From Limisalsivibrio acetivorans (GTDB taxonomy: Bacteria; Chrysiogenota; Deferribacteres; Deferribacterales; Geovibrionaceae), in the NCBI RefSeq assembly GCF_000421105.1, contig NZ_ATWF01000001.1, positions 654,930 to 718,929 of the forward strand: a stretch of DNA of 64,000 nucleotides, given 5' to 3'. Made by a program: the position numbers and the translations under genes. This document shows, in pieces, positions 10,865 through 58,670 of this stretch; positions within the stretch are counted from its first letter, which is position 1; the number at the start of each line of letters is the position of its first letter. The notes beneath the pieces are model-generated. The model worked only from the letters and a program-made list of their open reading frames with translations. It did no database searches and had not been told where the DNA came from.

Positions 10865-11734
10865 GTGGAAGCAATCTTCCCCACCAGCATCGAGGCTACA
10901 TTTGACAGTGTTGAAGAGGAAGGGAGCGTCATCATTTATGAGGTTCGCAGTGGTGATGATTACGGCTCCATCCGCTCCATGATCGAAGAGGACCATTTCT
11001 ACCTCTTCATCGCATCCCGCAGTTTTGACGTGCACTTCCTAGAGTTGTCTTCCGAATTCTTCTTTGTATTCAGTCATTATGATGACCCGTCCGAAGAAAT
11101 CGTAATACGTTTCAATACCCTGATGAAATATAAAAGCATCCTTGATGAACTCCGCAACAAGAGCGAGGAGCTTGAGAACACTGTATTCGAACTCGCCTTT
11201 GCATCAACAAATGTCCTTGAGCAGAATGAGTTTCTTGAGAAAATGGCTAAGAAAGACGGCCTGACGATGCTGTACAACCACTCCTACTTCAAGGATAAAA
11301 TGAAGCATGAGTTCGACCGTTCCGGAAGATACGACAATAACTTCACACTTGCAATCCTCGATCTTGATTTCTTCAAGAAGGTCAACGACACCCACGGTCA
11401 CCTCAAGGGGGACGAGGTCCTTAAGGCCTTCGCAAACGTTATCAGCGACATGGTTCGAGAATCAGATATCGCCGCAAGGTACGGCGGGGAAGAGTTTGCC
11501 ATAATCTTTACAGAAACAGGTATAAAAGAGGCCGTAATCGCCATCGACCGCATCCGTAAGGAGATGGACAAGAAGGTTTTCGAAAGCCCCATCGGAAAGT
11601 TCAGTGTTACATTCAGTGCGGGGATAACCCTCTTCGATGAGAAATTCAAGGATATTGAGGAAATGATACATATTGCCGACAAAGCGCTTTACATGAGTAA
11701 GCGCAACGGTCGGAATATGACGACTGTTCTCTGA
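10865..11734 (+). CDS. diguanylate cyclase (GGDEF domain), start codon uncertain
   Basis: At least 289 residues: an unrecognised N-terminal region of ~105 residues, a short coiled coil (NKSEELENTVFELA), then a GGDEF domain of ~165 residues. The active site reads GGEEF and is preceded by RESD, an intact RxxD inhibitory site five residues upstream. It should therefore make c-di-GMP and be product-inhibited. It is soluble, with no membrane helix. The first usual start in frame is GTG at 10865, with a poor ribosome site. The frame stays open upstream, and a strong AGGAGG (10802-10807) precedes GTT at 10814, where a start codon would be expected. The true N-terminus may be 17 residues longer. Confidence 0.88.
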   Translation: MEAIFPTSIEATFDSVEEEGSVIIYEVRSGDDYGSIRSMIEEDHFYLFIASRSFDVHFLELSSEFFFVFSHYDDPSEEIVIRFNTLMKYKSILDELRNKSEELENTVFELAFASTNVLEQNEFLEKMAKKDGLTMLYNHSYFKDKMKHEFDRSGRYDNNFTLAILDLDFFKKVNDTHGHLKGDEVLKAFANVISDMVRESDIAARYGGEEFAIIFTETGIKEAVIAIDRIRKEMDKKVFESPIGKFSVTFSAGITLFDEKFKDIEEMIHIADKALYMSKRNGRNMTTVL

Positions 11735-11742
11735 TTTTATGT

Positions 11743-12090
11743 ATGGAATTTCCCATCCATTTTATTTGGGAAATTCATCATCCTGAGAATTTCCCTGCCG
11801 CTACGCTTGGCAAAGCCTTCGCTCCGCTTACTTCCGGCTTCGTGAATTGTGCAAAGCTCAATTCAGCTACGCCTTCAGGGGCTTCCATCCTTGGAAGCCT
11901 GTTACCTATCAACCTCAAACGTGTGATTAGCATAAGCTTTCATGGATGAAAGCTCGCTTGCGTAAGTGAGAAGGCAGCTTCTTTCTTCGAACGGCAGAAT
12001 AATTTCCATGGACGGGAAATTATTCAGACAGATAAAGGGGTTTTTAAGGGGTTCCTAAGGGGAAAGTTTTCCCTAAAAATTTCCCCTTAG
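11743..12090. repeat. palindromic repeat cluster A, unit 1 (most complete)
   Basis: The fullest copy of a mosaic repeat made of successive hairpins: GGGAAATTC/GAATTTCCC (11768-11795); a shared block starting GCTACGCTTGGCAAAGCC; GGCTTCCA/TGGAAGCC (11880-11899); an AGCTTTCA/TGAAAGCT hairpin near 11936-11955; a shared CGCTTGCGTAAGTGAGAAGG block; and CTAAGGGGAAA/TTTCCCCTTAG (12055-12090). Similar units recur at 12104-12453, 12931-13090 and 45870-46310. There is no transposase and no credible coding frame. It fills the gap between two convergent genes. Confidence 0.85.
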
Positions 12091-12103
12091 TCTTTATTAT
12101 ATT

Positions 12104-12235
12104 TATGGAATTTTCCATCCATGGAAATTCCATTGCCGCTACGCTTGGCAAAGCCTTCGCTCCGCTTACTTCCGGCTTCGTGAATTGTGCAGAGCACAAT
12201 TCAGCTTCGCCTTCAGAGGCTTCCATCCATACTAA
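12104..12235. repeat. repeat cluster A, unit 2 (partial)
   Basis: It starts with the palindrome GGAATTTTCCATCCATGG and its mirror. The GCTACGCTTGGCAAAGCC block and a perfect 9-bp hairpin GAATTGTGC-aga-GCACAATTC (about 12182-12202) follow. It lacks the second half of unit 1. The same palindrome opens a copy at about 45913 in cluster B. Confidence 0.8.
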
Positions 12236-12453
12236 TCTGGGAAATTCATCATCCTGAGAATTTCCCTGACGCTACGCTTGGCAAAGCCTTCGCTCCGCTT
12301 TCTTCCGGCTACATAAATTGAATACAATTCAGCTTCGCCTTCAGAGGCTTCCATCCTTGGAAGCCTGTTATGTATCAACCTTTATAAAAATCCCAAAATG
12401 GGTTTTTAAGGGGTTCCTAAGGGGAAAGTTTTCCCTAAAAATTTCCCCTTAGT
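12236..12453. repeat. repeat cluster A, unit 3 (partial)
   Basis: Hairpin GGGAAATTC/GAATTTCCC (12239-12266), the GCTACGCTTGGCAAAGCC block, hairpin GGCTTCCA/TGGAAGCC (12346-12365) and the closing hairpin CTAAGGGGAAA/TTTCCCCTTAG (about 12417-12452). The segment between the last two hairpins is deleted relative to unit 1, so units vary by loss of whole modules. Confidence 0.8.
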
Positions 12454-12502
12454 TTTATTTTTACTTAATTAAATGCGAAATTAGGCACTAATTTATGTGT
12501 TT

Positions 12503-12890
12503 CGTGCTAAAGCACGCCATACTTTTGGCGCAAAAGTATGCAAAACTATTCCCTCAGGGTTTTCCAGCCCCCATTGTTACTCATTTATATTCATAAATTC
12601 GTAATCGATGGCGGTGCCCTCATTTCGCTCTTTTTCCACCTGAAGTTTTGCTGATGCTGAGGAGTGTAACCGCACTTCATACATTTAAGTATTCTATATT
12701 TAAGATTAACTCTTCTGTCACGTGCGGCCAAAACTTCCGGGCGGTTCCAAAAGAGCTCATTCGGCTGTAAAACATTCGGGGAAGATTAAGAGCGTTTGTG
12801 GTAAAATCGGCAATAGGCTATTAGTAACCATCTAGCCGAAATACCTTTTCACGTTTCACGTTGTTTTCTCTTGGTTGTAAACGTTATAGC
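12503..12890 (-). repeat. 388-bp inverted element, copy A
   Basis: The reverse complement of this segment matches 45425-45812; both copies are 388 bp. A 180-base core differs at only six positions, while the outer third (about 12780-12890) is more diverged. The left end carries hairpins CATACTTTTG-gcg-CAAAAGTATG (about 12518-12540) and CGTGCT-aa-AGCACG. A long-range pairing of GAAGTTTT with AAAACTTC, extended by CCGCC with GGTGG, encloses the core. Read on the minus strand, a frame of about 64 codons without an ATG start contains a CxxC pair (KCMKCGY). It is either a decayed small gene or a structured RNA; no family is recognised. Confidence 0.75.
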
Positions 12891-12930
12891 CAGCTCGATT
12901 CAATTCTGACGATGAAGGTTGCTACCAAAT

Positions 12931-13090
12931 AGGCTTCTATCCGTGGAAGCCTGTTACATATCAACCTCAAATCTGTGGTTATCATAAGCTCACATGAATG
13001 TGAGCTCGCTTGCGTAAGTGAGAAGGAAGCTTCTTTCTTCGAACGGCAGAATAATTTCCATGTATGGAAAATTATTCAGATAGAATAAAG
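12931..13090. repeat. repeat cluster A, unit 4 (right part only)
   Basis: It has the right half of unit 1: a GGCTTCTA/TGGAAGCC hairpin, TGTTACATATCAACCTC, an AGCTCACAT/ATGTGAGCT hairpin (12988-13007 region), the CGCTTGCGTAAGTGAGAAGG block and ATAATTTCCAT/ATGGAAAATTAT. The AGCT hairpin has two base pairs changed on both arms relative to unit 1, so pairing is kept. From 13091 to 13154 nothing is seen before the mqnA stop codon. Confidence 0.78.
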
Positions 13091-13154
13091 GAGTTTTTGA
13101 AAGTTAATTTGAAGCTACATAAAAACAAGTATAGATTTTAAGTATAAGCAATCA

Positions 13155-13940
13155 CTAGGTGATCATATGTAGAGGTGGTACGTTTTTGATTGCGCCGAGT
13201 TCTGCGGCGTAGCGGTAGAATCTAAGTAGTGCTTCTATGTGCTTATCAGAGAGGTTATAGTCTATCGTCTCCCAATAATCTATAATTTGATAGGATGTGA
13301 GACCTTTGAATGTGTAATGGTCCAGCAGTGCGGCGAGGTTCTTTTTACTGTCTGCCTTTATCTTCATCAGATCATCGATAAAAGCCTTAATCTCACCCCA
13401 TTTGTTCTGCACAGTCTCTTTACGCACAGTCCATAGTGCAAAAACGAAGGGCAAACCTGTGAATTCATGCCACTCTGTTCCGAGATCATAGATATATGAG
13501 TGACTGCCATTATAATACTCAAACAGAGCCTTATCACCGATGAGAACCTTTGCAGATGCGTCTTCCAATTCTCTAGTGAACTCAGGGTTTATGCCATACT
13601 TCTCACGTAGCAGTATCCTCACCAAAACAACGCTTGTGCCACTCTCACCGGTAAGATAGATTCGTTTATCCCTCAATTCCTCCACAGGAAATCTGGAATA
13701 AAGCATTACGCTCTTTACCTTATCGATACAGCTTATGGAGATCCCCGGTATGAGCATATAGCTCTCAGGTGATTTGGCGTATTCGATACTGCTGCATGGT
13801 GCAACATCTATCCCGCCTTCTCTTATTGCATGGTTCAGGAAAGAAGGAACACCTTTGACTATCCTTATCCCTGAATGGTTGTTCAGATGATGATATATTG
13901 GATATATATTTGCATAGTCTATCTGGCCGATTCTAAGCAT
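13155..13940 (-). CDS. mqnA: chorismate dehydratase MqnA (futalosine menaquinone pathway)
   Basis: A protein of about 261 residues with a periplasmic-binding-protein-like fold but no signal peptide, as in MqnA. MqnA converts chorismate to 3-[(1-carboxyvinyl)oxy]benzoate, the first step of futalosine-dependent menaquinone synthesis. Family marks are the start RIGQIDYANIYPIY, GGIDVAPCSSIEYA and the LTGESGTSVVLVRILL segment. ATG 13940 is preferred over the TTG at 13958 because GGAG lies 5 bases from it. It overlaps the end of trmL by 22 bases. Confidence 0.88.
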   Translation of the reverse strand: MLRIGQIDYANIYPIYHHLNNHSGIRIVKGVPSFLNHAIREGGIDVAPCSSIEYAKSPESYMLIPGISISCIDKVKSVMLYSRFPVEELRDKRIYLTGESGTSVVLVRILLREKYGINPEFTRELEDASAKVLIGDKALFEYYNGSHSYIYDLGTEWHEFTGLPFVFALWTVRKETVQNKWGEIKAFIDDLMKIKADSKKNLAALLDHYTFKGLTSYQIIDYWETIDYNLSDKHIEALLRFYRYAAELGAIKNVPPLHMIT

Positions 13941-14416
13941 TTCTTCTCCAGCCCGCAAAAATCAATCCTGCGCAGAATATCGTATGTTATAACAGCAACT
14001 GCGTTGGAAAGGTTCAAACTCCGTACATCCCCTGTAGTGGGTATCCTGTAAAGGTAATCACCATACCGATTGAGCATTTCTTCATCTAAGCCTTCTGTCT
14101 CTCTGCCGAAGATAAGTAGAAGCTCTTTACCACTTTCTACCGGTATCTCTGTATACTCAGTCTCAGCCTTTTTACTGAGAACGGCATAGGTGTATTCATC
14201 CGCTGGATAGAGAGAAAATAGGTCCTCAACTTCCTCCACACGAGTGAGCTTCACTTTTTTCCAGTAGTCAAGCCCTGCCCTCTTAAGATACTTGTCATCA
14301 AGTGAGAACCCGAGTTTGCCACAGAGTATAAGTTCGCTCCCTGTGGCAACGCAAAGCCTGCCTATATTGCCTGTATTCTGAGGGATTTCCGGTTCTATGA
14401 GGGCGATATGGATCAT
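13919..14416 (-). CDS. trmL: tRNA (cytidine/uridine-2'-O-)-methyltransferase TrmL
   Basis: A SPOUT-class (trefoil-knot) methyltransferase of about 165 residues that 2'-O-methylates position 34 of tRNA-Leu isoacceptors. It has the family start IHIALIEPEIPQNTGNIGR, the GRETEGLDEE turn and the knot motif RIPTTGDVRSLNLSNAVA. The chosen ATG overlaps the stop of the preceding gene as ATGA, implying translational coupling; a longer in-frame start would intrude into that gene. Confidence 0.93.
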   Translation of the reverse strand: MIHIALIEPEIPQNTGNIGRLCVATGSELILCGKLGFSLDDKYLKRAGLDYWKKVKLTRVEEVEDLFSLYPADEYTYAVLSKKAETEYTEIPVESGKELLLIFGRETEGLDEEMLNRYGDYLYRIPTTGDVRSLNLSNAVAVITYDILRRIDFCGLEKKCLESAR

Positions 14417-44942: not shown

Positions 44943-45260
44943 TTAGTCCATATCCTTACTGAGCTTTACAAGTTTGCGTTTGAGGTCGGCTTTTTTTCTC
45001 GCACTTTCATCGCTGTCCCCCTCTCCTTCTTCAAGGAGGCGGGCGTTTTCAACGATGCGTTTTATTCGCTCAGCGAGGATCCGTCCCATATCATTATGGA
45101 CCTCTTCACTCCCCTCTTCGGTATACTGATCGTTGGCTGTTATTATTATATCATTCTTAAGGGCAAAAAAGAAACTGCTCACCTGATAGAAATTGCTAAG
45201 CCTATTTAGAAGCGCAATCTTATGCTGGAGAATCAGTTCCCTGTCGATTAAATCCGGCAT
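44943..45260 (-). CDS. hypothetical protein, about 105 residues
   Basis: No family recognised. The protein is soluble, with an N-terminal helix (DRELILQHKIALLNRLSNFYQVSSFFFALKNDI), an acidic centre, and a C-terminal half rich in Glu, Arg and Lys with a coiled-coil pattern. The start may be ATG 45260 or ATG 45284; neither has a strong ribosome site. Base composition is like its neighbours. It lies next to repeat cluster B, upstream of the CsgG-like gene. Confidence 0.6.
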   Translation of the reverse strand: MPDLIDRELILQHKIALLNRLSNFYQVSSFFFALKNDIIITANDQYTEEGSEEVHNDMGRILAERIKRIVENARLLEEGEGDSDESARKKADLKRKLVKLSKDMD

Positions 45261-45284
45261 GGCCTTTACGGGCCCCCATTTCAT

Positions 45285-46369
45285 TGTGTACTGTCCCGAT
45301 TGTTTCGATAAGGGTTCAATACCTGAAATACGCAGGTTATGATACTAATCGAACTTTTCTGGAAATACTTGAAGCAATATATGCATAAAATAAGACCATA
45401 GAAATTCCATAGATTTAATCGGTAGCTATAACGTTTACACTAAAGAGGAAACAACGTGAGACGTGAAGCGCTTTTTCGTTAAACAGGTGACTAGTAGCCA
45501 ATATTCTGTTTAGCAAATAACCCTCTTAATCTTCCCCGAATGTTTTACAACCGAATGAGCTCTTTTGGAACCGCCCGGAAGTTTTGGCCGCACGTGACAG
45601 AAGAGTTAATCTTAAATATAGAATGCTTAAATGTATGAAGTGAGGTTACACTCCTCAGCATCAGCAAAACTTCAGGTGGAAAAAGAGTGAAATGAGGGAA
45701 CCGCCATCAATTACGAATTTATGAATATAAATGAGTAACAATGGGGGATGTAAAACTCTGAGGGAATAGTTTTGCATACTTTTGCGCCAAAAGTATGGCG
45801 TGCCTTAGCACGTAACCAATCATTAGTGACTTATTTAGTATTATAGTATGAAAGTAAAAGATCGCAGGGAACTTTTTAGGGAAAACTTTCCCCTTAGTCT
45901 TAATTATATTTATGGAATTTTCCATCCATGGAAATTCCATCGTTGATCGGGTAGGGAAACCCTCCCCTCTCGCACTTCCGGCTACGTGAATTGCGCAGTG
46001 CCCAATTCAGCTACGCCTTCAAGGCTTCCATCCATACTAATCTGGGAAATTCATCATCCTGAGAATTTCCCTGCCGCTACGCTTGGCAAAGCCTTCGCTC
46101 CGCTTACTTCCGGCTACATAAATTGAATACAATTCAATTCAGCTTCGCCTTCAGGGCTTCCATCCTTGGAAGCCTGTTACCTATCAATCTCAAACGTATG
46201 ATTAGCTCAAGCTTTCATGGATGAAAGCTCGCTTGCGTAAGTGAGAAGGAAGCCTCTTTCTTCGAACGGCAGAATAATTTCCATGGATGGGAAATTCCAT
46301 ACATATACATAGATTAAGTGCTGCAGGGAGCCTTTTACAGCCCCCTGCTGTCTTATATAATACTATTTA
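45285..46369. repeat. palindromic repeat cluster B (whole gap)
   Basis: A gene-free region between the unknown gene and rnfB. Apart from the 388-bp element it holds modules of cluster A. 45870-46020 has the TTTCCCCTTAG arm, the GGAATTTTCCATCCATGG palindrome and a diverged middle. 46030-46310 has hairpin GGGAAATTC/GAATTTCCC (46044-46071), the GCTACGCTTGGCAAAGCC block and the GGCTTCCA/TGGAAGCC hairpin. The AGCTTTCA hairpin and the CGCTTGCGTAAGTGAGAAGG block follow in the same unit. An imperfect hairpin GCAGGGAGC/GCCCCCTGC (about 46321-46346) downstream of rnfB may end the rnf operon. Confidence 0.82.
45425..45812 (+). repeat. 388-bp inverted element, copy B
   Basis: The inverted counterpart of 12503-12890. 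The core 45541-45720 differs from copy A at six positions. It keeps hairpin CATACTTTTG-cgc-CAAAAGTATG (about 45775-45797), the long-range GAAGTTTT/AAAACTTC pairing and AAAACT/AGTTTT. In the frame with the CxxC pair, one Cys codon has become TGA, so this copy cannot make the full peptide. Near the left end AAACAG/CTGTTT pair at the place where copy A has TCGGC/GCCGA. Confidence 0.75.
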
Positions 46370-47158
46370 TCAGTCTTCGAACTTAAGTATAGCGTTAGTG
46401 GGGCAGACCTCTTCGCATTTACCGCAGTTTATGCAGGTTTCGGGATCGATCTTTGCGAGGAAGCTGTCCACTTCAATGGCACCGACAGGGCAGTTCTTAG
46501 CACAGAGTCTGCATCCGATACAGCCCACTGTACAGTTCTTTTTGACTTCGGGGCCCTTATCCTTAGACATGCAGGTCACCACGAAGGGTTTATCCTCGGG
46601 TATCAGCTCGATAAGTGCTCTGGGACATGCCTTAACGCACATGCCGCAGGAGGTACACATAACGGGGTCGATTATCGGTATGCGATCCTCGCCCATGCGC
46701 ATTGCATCGAATCCACAGGCCTTGACACAGCTCCCCTCACCGAGACATCCGAAGGAACAGAGTTTGTTTCCGCCGGCAAGCATGGCGATGCTGTGGCAGT
46801 CACGAGGACCGTAGTAGTCGTATTTTTCGGGGGCTTTATCGCTCCCTCCACGGCATTTAACACGGGCAACTTTCTTGACCCCTCCGCCAAACTCCATGCC
46901 GAGATAATCGGCAATCTGCTCGGCAAGCTCCGAACCGCCCACGGGACAGGAATCGGGACCAGAGTTTCCGGCTACGATGGATTCTGCCAAAGCGCCGCAG
47001 CCGGGAAATCCGCATCCGCCGCAGTTGGCCGCAGGAAGCAGTTCATTAATCCCCTCGATACGGGGGTCCTTGTCCACATGGAACTTTTTAGAGGCTACCA
47101 TGAGCCCGAATCCGGCTGCGAAGCCGGTGGCAAGCATTGTTAATACAGCAGCAGTCAT
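46370..47158 (-). CDS. rnfB: Rnf electron transport complex subunit RnfB
   Basis: The multi-cluster iron-sulfur subunit of the ferredoxin:NAD+ oxidoreductase; 262 residues. An N-terminal membrane anchor is followed by the CGGCGFPGCG four-Fe motif and a region rich in ferredoxin motifs: CSFGCLGEGSC, CTSCGMCVKACP, CIGCRLCAKNCP and CINCGKCEEVCP. It receives electrons from ferredoxin. It is the last gene of rnfCDGEAB, the order found in acetogens and other anaerobes. Confidence 0.97.
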   Translation of the reverse strand: MTAAVLTMLATGFAAGFGLMVASKKFHVDKDPRIEGINELLPAANCGGCGFPGCGALAESIVAGNSGPDSCPVGGSELAEQIADYLGMEFGGGVKKVARVKCRGGSDKAPEKYDYYGPRDCHSIAMLAGGNKLCSFGCLGEGSCVKACGFDAMRMGEDRIPIIDPVMCTSCGMCVKACPRALIELIPEDKPFVVTCMSKDKGPEVKKNCTVGCIGCRLCAKNCPVGAIEVDSFLAKIDPETCINCGKCEEVCPTNAILKFED

Positions 47159-58480: not shown

Positions 58481-58498
58481 AAAAAAACAAGCCCCCGC
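58481..58498 (-). terminator. T-run at the 3' end of 6S RNA
   Basis: The GC-rich 3' arm GCGGGGGC of the 6S closing stem is followed by TTG and seven T residues, then directly by the rarA ATG. With the base-paired 5' arm 170 nt away it could act as an intrinsic terminator or merely end the processed RNA. Confidence 0.55.
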
Positions 58499-58670
58499 AA
58501 ACGCCGTTTATGAAGAAAATATTGTAGCCCTGTAAACCAGGGCGGAGGAATCGCGGCTGCATTAGGCTTCCCGCCGAGGGCGGGTCTGCACACAACAACC
58601 AGCAGTCATCCTCCTGTTGTAAGGTGTTGGCTCCAAACTTCCTTCATTTCACGAACGCCGCAGGGGCCAT
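58488..58670 (-). ncRNA. ssrS: 6S RNA
   Basis: About 183 nt on the minus strand with the 6S fold. The closing stem pairs GCCCCTGC with GCGGGGGC and then GTTCGTGAA with TTCATAAAC. The 5' side of the bubble reads TTTGGAGCCAACACC, typical of the family. An upper stem GGAGGA/TTCCTCC leads to hairpin CCCGCC-ctc-GGCGGG and the GGGAAGCCTAATGCAGCCGC segment, like GAGAAGCCTTAAAACTGCGA of E. coli. The 3' bubble hairpin GCCCTG/CAGGGC precedes the return strand. It mimics an open promoter and holds sigma-70 RNA polymerase in stationary phase. The setting next to zapA and near the folate cyclo-ligase gene is the classical one. Confidence 0.9.

What the first reader, a model, noticed from the sequence alone, without database searches (positions are those of the whole stretch)
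12503..12890. 388-bp element present twice in opposite orientation, 33 kb apart
12503-12890 and 45425-45812 are reverse complements of equal length. The 180-base core differs at six positions, while the outer third is much more diverged. Both sit inside gene-free palindrome clusters. No transposase or terminal repeat is seen. Such a pair can support inversion of the 33 kb between them, which carries only housekeeping genes.
Basis: seen in the sequence. Interest (0 to 1): 0.65.

Follow-up and report, generated by a model that had tools for sequence, protein, structure and literature searches.

The report
Orphan structured repeat family bounding inversions
The two matching 388-base pieces belong to a family of about 40 hairpin-rich, gene-free repeats found only in this bacterium among the genomes searched, and the places where its chromosome has been rearranged relative to its relatives lie strikingly often at these repeats, including a clean 10-kb inversion bounded by two inverted copies.

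Summary
The pair is real: 388 bases each, reverse complements, 349/388 identical, with 29 of 39 differences in 12791-12877. It is not a pair but part of a dispersed family: 39 core matches in this genome, none solid in the other 50 genomes of the phylum or in a 385-genome sample. The repeat unit is about 515 bp. Its core is 251-253 nt in all 24 full copies aligned, has two subfamilies (~70% identical) and folds into several helices; 22 base pairs change on both sides (slid controls at most 7). Copies are mosaics, sit in gene-free hairpin clusters, favour convergent gene ends (15/35 versus 55/470) and attract IS30-family insertions (4 of 5 copies of one IS in the same hairpin loop). Gene order at repeat clusters is conserved with a relative in 3/17 cases, versus 199/259 elsewhere. 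A 12-gene, 10-kb inversion is bounded by inverted copies 97-98% identical; the ancestral order holds in 10 of 11 relatives. The cluster at 12503 is a breakpoint on both sides. The 33 kb between the reported copies is NOT inverted relative to the relative compared; its right cluster is an insertion into an intact junction. Closest known kinds are BIME/REP and MITE-like repeats, but it fails their tested definitions. How it spreads is unknown.

The parts
11740..13110 (.). Gene-free repeat cluster 1 (hairpin modules plus element copy 1), between a GGDEF gene (10865-11734 +) and mqnA (13155-13958 -); a synteny breakpoint on both sides
   Evidence: Repeat depth in fetched loci is about 1 outside and mostly 30-170 inside; Pfam; broken synteny
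12417..12930 (+). Element copy 1, whole ~515-bp repeat unit
   Evidence: Profile match 3-515 of 517
12417..12452 (+). Left hairpin module (CTAAGGGGAAAGTTTT/AAAAATTTCCCCTTAG); also occurs without the core; target of the second IS30-type element in other copies
   Evidence: three versions with matching stems
12503..12890 (+). The reported 388-bp element, copy 1
12503..12516 (+). Hairpin H1 (CGTGC/GCACG; the alternative GCGC/GCGC version in other copies covaries)
12518..12540 (+). Hairpin H2 (CATACTTTT/AAAAGTATG); its loop is the insertion site of four of five copies of one IS30-family element elsewhere in the genome
12542..12792 (+). Constant-length core (251-253 nt in all 24 full copies aligned), closed by stem P1 (12549-12554/12778-12783 and 12559-12567/12765-12773)
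12568..12614 (+). Hairpin P2 of the core; its stem sequence is replaced wholesale in subfamily B and in copy L016 with pairing kept
12628..12755 (+). Long stem P3 of the core (12628-12634/12749-12755 and 12642-12650/12729-12737), with near-invariant CTGATnCTGAGGAG and CGGGCGG segments
12793..12890 (+).
45400..46310 (.). Gene-free repeat cluster 2, between an unnamed gene (44943-45284 -) and the rnfB-like Fe-S gene (46370-47158 -); inserted in a junction that is otherwise conserved
   Evidence: G004 gap 90 bp against 1085 bp here; Pfam
45425..45812 (-). The reported 388-bp element, copy 2 (repeat unit extends to 45897)
45523..45773 (-). Core of copy 2

Best explanation
An orphan family of dispersed, non-coding, palindrome-rich mosaic repeats (unit ~515 bp, conserved 251-253-nt folded core). 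SHOWN: about 40 copies in one genome in both orientations; pairing of the core kept through changes on both sides; recombination between copies (mosaics); preferred location at gene 3' ends, above all convergent ones; preferred landing sites of two IS30-family elements; ancestral gene junctions broken at the repeats far more often than elsewhere, with one clean inversion bounded by inverted copies. INFERRED: the copies are tolerated, probably selfish DNA kept where they disturb promoters least; they form hairpins in single-stranded or supercoiled DNA; RecA-type recombination between inverted copies inverts the segment between them, and gene conversion homogenises and shuffles copies. UNKNOWN: how new copies arise, since none carries a gene of its own and no Y1/REP-type transposase or reverse transcriptase was found in the genome.
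For: Copy number and orientation. Constant-length core with 22 pairs changed on both sides and 96 such cells, against at most 7 and 32 with partners slid. Mosaics: copies with B core and A right arm, or with A and B left ends exchanged. Placement: 15/35 convergent versus 55/470, p = 1e-5. IS30 targeting. Broken synteny 14/17 versus 60/259, p = 1e-6; convergent junctions conserved 0/10 versus 15/29, p = 0.006. Inversion of 12 genes between inverted clusters 97-98% identical over 725 bp, ancestral order in 10 of 11 relatives. Four junctions split between two repeat-facing ends: serA-yjbQ|GGDEF, A|X, MBL|392482, 625598|mqnA. Insertion at cluster 2.
Against: The synteny sample is small (17 repeat junctions scored) and one relative serves as reference for most of it. 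Breakpoints could attract repeats instead of repeats making breakpoints. Near-invariant unpaired segments and a constant core length are more than a mere recombination substrate needs. The 33-kb pair itself has not inverted.
Confidence: 0.75

Rival explanations
1. The core is a structured non-coding RNA (or an RNA-based mobile element) that is transcribed, folds, and is recognised by a protein or acts by itself; the repeats spread or are kept because of that RNA.
For: Multi-helix fold with both-side changes in helices whose arms are 80-200 nt apart, constant core length, conserved unpaired segments; fold z-score -5.3 on the + strand and -3.9 on the other.
Against: No strand preference: departures that would be G-U on the + strand and those that would be G-U on the - strand both occur. 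No promoter excess in cluster 1. No Rfam relative even at relaxed cut-off. No reverse transcriptase found in the genome. Both strands fold well, as expected of DNA palindromes.
Confidence: 0.17
2. The both-side changes come from template switching (quasi-palindrome correction) during replication of imperfect inverted repeats, so the fold reflects a mutational process, not selection. This concerns the fold only and is compatible with the best explanation.
For: Template switching is reported to create and maintain hairpin stems (PMC8794818). Wholesale replacement of the P2 stem in L016 and subfamily B looks like such events; lack of strand preference.
Against: Helices P1 and P3 join arms 80-200 nt apart and also hold changes on both sides; some unpaired segments are nearly invariant between subfamilies.
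Confidence: 0.3
3. A MITE or non-autonomous relative of a transposon, moved in trans by a transposase of the host, for example one of the two IS30-family elements.
For: Dispersed, gene-free, about 40 copies; IS30-family transposases are present in 16 copies.
Against: No terminal inverted repeats or constant ends; ends are modular and the flanks differ from copy to copy. The first IS30 type lies inside hairpin H2 as a guest with 2-bp target duplications, and the IS termini read there do not resemble the element ends. No Y1 transposase.
Confidence: 0.12
4. Chance duplication of one segment.
For: No relatives found outside this genome.
Against: About 40 copies and two subfamilies in the same genome.
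Confidence: 0.01

Closest known systems
REP / BIME (bacterial interspersed mosaic elements)
   Same: Intergenic, palindromic, mosaic arrays in both orientations, landing sites for IS elements and sites of recombination; placement at gene ends and convergent spaces is discussed for REPs (PMC1525189, PMC2817692).
   Different: REPs are 21-65 bases (PMC1525189) and are linked to Y1-type TnpA-REP transposases; here the unit is ~515 bp with a 251-253-nt multi-helix core and the genome has no Y1 match.
Bacterial MITEs and similar repeats (Correia/NEMIS, RUP, CIR, ERIC)
   Same: Gene-free, dispersed, fold into stem-loops, mostly intergenic (PMC2229807, PMC2267715).
   Different: Those are under 200 bp, most with terminal inverted repeats and target duplications (PMC2229807); none seen here.
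Deinococcus small noncoding repeats (recalled from memory)
   Same: Mosaic, nested intergenic repeats confined to a lineage.
   Different: Shorter; compared from memory only, no sequence test.
Inversions between inverted repeats such as IS or rRNA copies (general knowledge)
   Same: Segment between inverted copies is flipped by homologous recombination.
   Different: The substrate here is a non-coding hairpin cluster rather than an IS or rRNA gene.

Membership tests
REP/BIME | Palindromic, intergenic, many copies, mosaic arrays | tested here: met
REP/BIME | Short unit (21-65 b) | tested here: not met
   Unit ~515 bp, core 251-253 nt
REP/BIME | Associated Y1 transposase (TnpA-REP/RAYT) in the genome | tested here: not met
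   PF01797 has no match; controls ring in 5 of 14 genomes
MITE | Terminal inverted repeats and constant ends | tested here: not met
   Aligned ends are modular, no inverted termini
MITE | Target-site duplication | tested here: inconclusive
   Copies are embedded in mosaic clusters; no empty site at base resolution (G004 is too diverged)
Known structured RNA families | Match to an Rfam model | tested here: not met
Structured RNA (any) | Base pairs kept through changes on both sides | tested here: met
   22 pairs, slid controls at most 7; also expected of DNA hairpins and of template switching
Structured RNA (any) | Transcribed from one strand | tested here: inconclusive
   G-U versus A-C asymmetry shows no clear strand; no expression data
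Retron, group II intron or other RT-based repeats | Reverse transcriptase in the genome | tested here: not met
   PF00078 has no match
Repeat-mediated inversion substrate | Inverted copies at the ends of a derived inversion | tested here: met
   C1:564433-574773; resolved to the gene-free clusters, not to the base
Repeat-mediated inversion substrate | Both isomers seen in one population | not testable with these tools
   Needs reads or PCR

The most novel reading that the evidence does not exclude
The 251-253-nt core is a new class of large structured nucleic acid, an RNA or single-stranded DNA recognised by an unidentified host machinery, that drives its own dispersal and incidentally reshapes the chromosome.
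Probability: 0.15. Interest if true: 0.85.

Novelty: new variant of a known kind. Interest (0 to 1): 0.5.

Why it matters
It shows, within one genome, a chain from a gene-free folded repeat to chromosome rearrangement: copies at convergent gene ends, mosaics between them, IS elements homing to their hairpins, and ancestral gene junctions broken at them. The family is unusually large and complex for a bacterial dispersed repeat, is confined to one genome so far, and has no visible mobilising enzyme, so its origin and spread are an open, testable question.

Tried and rejected
Phage and plasmid records, blastn: none. Exact core pattern in genome contigs: none. From memory I suspected relatives in Bacteroidota and designed degenerate patterns for them; the hits in viral contigs and genome contigs were judged chance: most read as coding sequence by eye and none was supported by the covariance model, so that idea is dropped. 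A further core pattern in viral contigs found nothing. Covariance model over the phylum and 385 genomes: only this genome; weak scores in G006 and G007 (E 0.003-0.008) are not credible. REP/RAYT and reverse-transcriptase origin rejected for lack of the enzymes. Strand test for RNA inconclusive. Terminator or promoter function: no clear excess in cluster 1. First attempt at aligning the copies ignored their orientation and was redone. First core alignment used wrong coordinates (A1) and was replaced by A2. A tally of split junctions that let in low-identity paralogues was replaced by a stricter one. A simple 33-kb inversion between the reported pair was tested and not found.

Full report
OBSERVATION. 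The two 388-base stretches are ungapped reverse complements with 39 differences, 29 of them in 12791-12877; the best 180-base stretch has 5. Similarity runs on to 12417 and 45897. Both lie in gaps of 1.42 and 1.09 kb that hold no gene but many hairpins.

COPY NUMBER. The window lies at C1:654930-718929 of a 2.97-Mb genome in three contigs. A DNA search gives 45 matches and a covariance model of the core 39, both orientations, on both large contigs. About 24 copies are near full length (~515 bp); others are cut at recurrent points. None is found in the other 50 genomes of the phylum, nor in a 385-genome sample, nor in phage or plasmid records or viral contigs. Two pattern scans of the species-level genome collection found no exact core and only hits judged chance. 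In 1.2 Mb of relative G004 only a 22-base word of the clusters recurs.

ANATOMY. A left hairpin, two short hairpins (H1, H2), a core of 251-253 nt in all 24 full copies aligned, and a variable right arm that comes in several shared versions. Two subfamilies, A and B, are ~70% identical. A structure of 65 pairs has 89% of cells paired, 22 pairs with a change on both sides and 96 such cells; with the 3' partners slid by 1-3 columns this falls to 41-49%, 2-7 pairs and 8-32 cells. Part of this contrast is the single A/B split, so cells overstate the number of events, and the structure was drawn partly from these sequences. The segments CTGATnCTGAGGAG and CGGGCGG are nearly invariant. Departures equivalent to G-U on either strand both occur, so no strand is singled out. 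Template switching could produce some of the hairpin changes (PMC8794818) but less readily those in P1 and P3, whose arms are 80-200 nt apart.

MOSAICS AND IS ELEMENTS. L029 and L030 join a B core to an A right arm; several copies exchange A and B left ends. One IS30-family element (323-aa transposase, 5 copies) sits in the H2 loop in four cases with a 2-bp duplication (TA or CG) as read from the junctions; a second (11 copies) has module sequence on at least one side in six. The IS30 assignment rests on the look of the transposases, not on a family search. Palindromic repeats as IS targets are known (PMC1525189).

LOCATION. Among sampled junctions, those with the element are convergent in 15 of 35, those without repeats in 55 of 470 (p = 1e-5). 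Gene calls here are plain ORFs, not curated.

REARRANGEMENT. Against 1.2 Mb of G004, neighbouring genes stayed neighbours in 3 of 17 junctions with repeats and 199 of 259 without (p = 1e-6); for convergent junctions 0 of 10 and 15 of 29 (p = 0.006). The cleanest case: twelve genes at C1:564433-574773 run in exactly reversed order in G004. The clusters at both ends are inverted relative to each other and 97-98% identical over 725 bp, one interrupted by an IS. In 10 of 11 relatives genes A (561877) and X (574372) are adjacent; here they are apart, so the inversion is derived in this lineage (in G005 X was not seen). Four ancestral junctions are split so that both halves face repeats; that tally covers only genes inside the sampled stretches, which were chosen around the repeats.

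THE REPORTED PAIR. Copy 1: lysS-GGDEF is conserved in all 11 relatives and in those read downstream is followed by yjbQ and serA; here yjbQ lies at C1:303281 beside other copies, and mqnA's neighbour in G004 (its counterpart here is C1:625598) lies beside the copy at 625k. The blocks fit a 41-kb inversion between the copy at 625k (-) and copy 1 (+), overlaid with further events. Copy 2 sits in a conserved junction that is 90 bp in G004 and 1085 bp here, and the 33 kb from mqnA to rnfB is collinear with G004.

LIMITS. No reads, no expression data, one relative used for most synteny, a sample chosen around the repeats, mechanism of spread unknown. Contig C3 is masked and was not examined.

Noticed in passing
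L057 641-1606 and 1811-2782 (G000 C1:2355640-2357781): Two different IS30-family elements inserted one after the other within the same hairpin cluster, each in a different hairpin.
   Followed up: partly
G000 C1:2371714-2372840, 1824009-1824871, 303913-304949, 956946-958146: Neighbouring copies of the element 0.5-0.75 kb apart in the same orientation, i.e. local tandem duplication of units.
   Followed up: partly
L219, about C1:563400-564400 (cluster at 563k): A tandem array of about four ~249-bp units, each 93-95% identical to one stretch of the cluster at 575k, next to the inversion endpoint.
   Followed up: no
window 58488-58669: 6S RNA gene on the minus strand (Rfam RF00013, 81 bits).
   Followed up: no
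G000 C3:1-2467 (L062): The third contig reads as N (masked), so copies there cannot be excluded.
   Followed up: no
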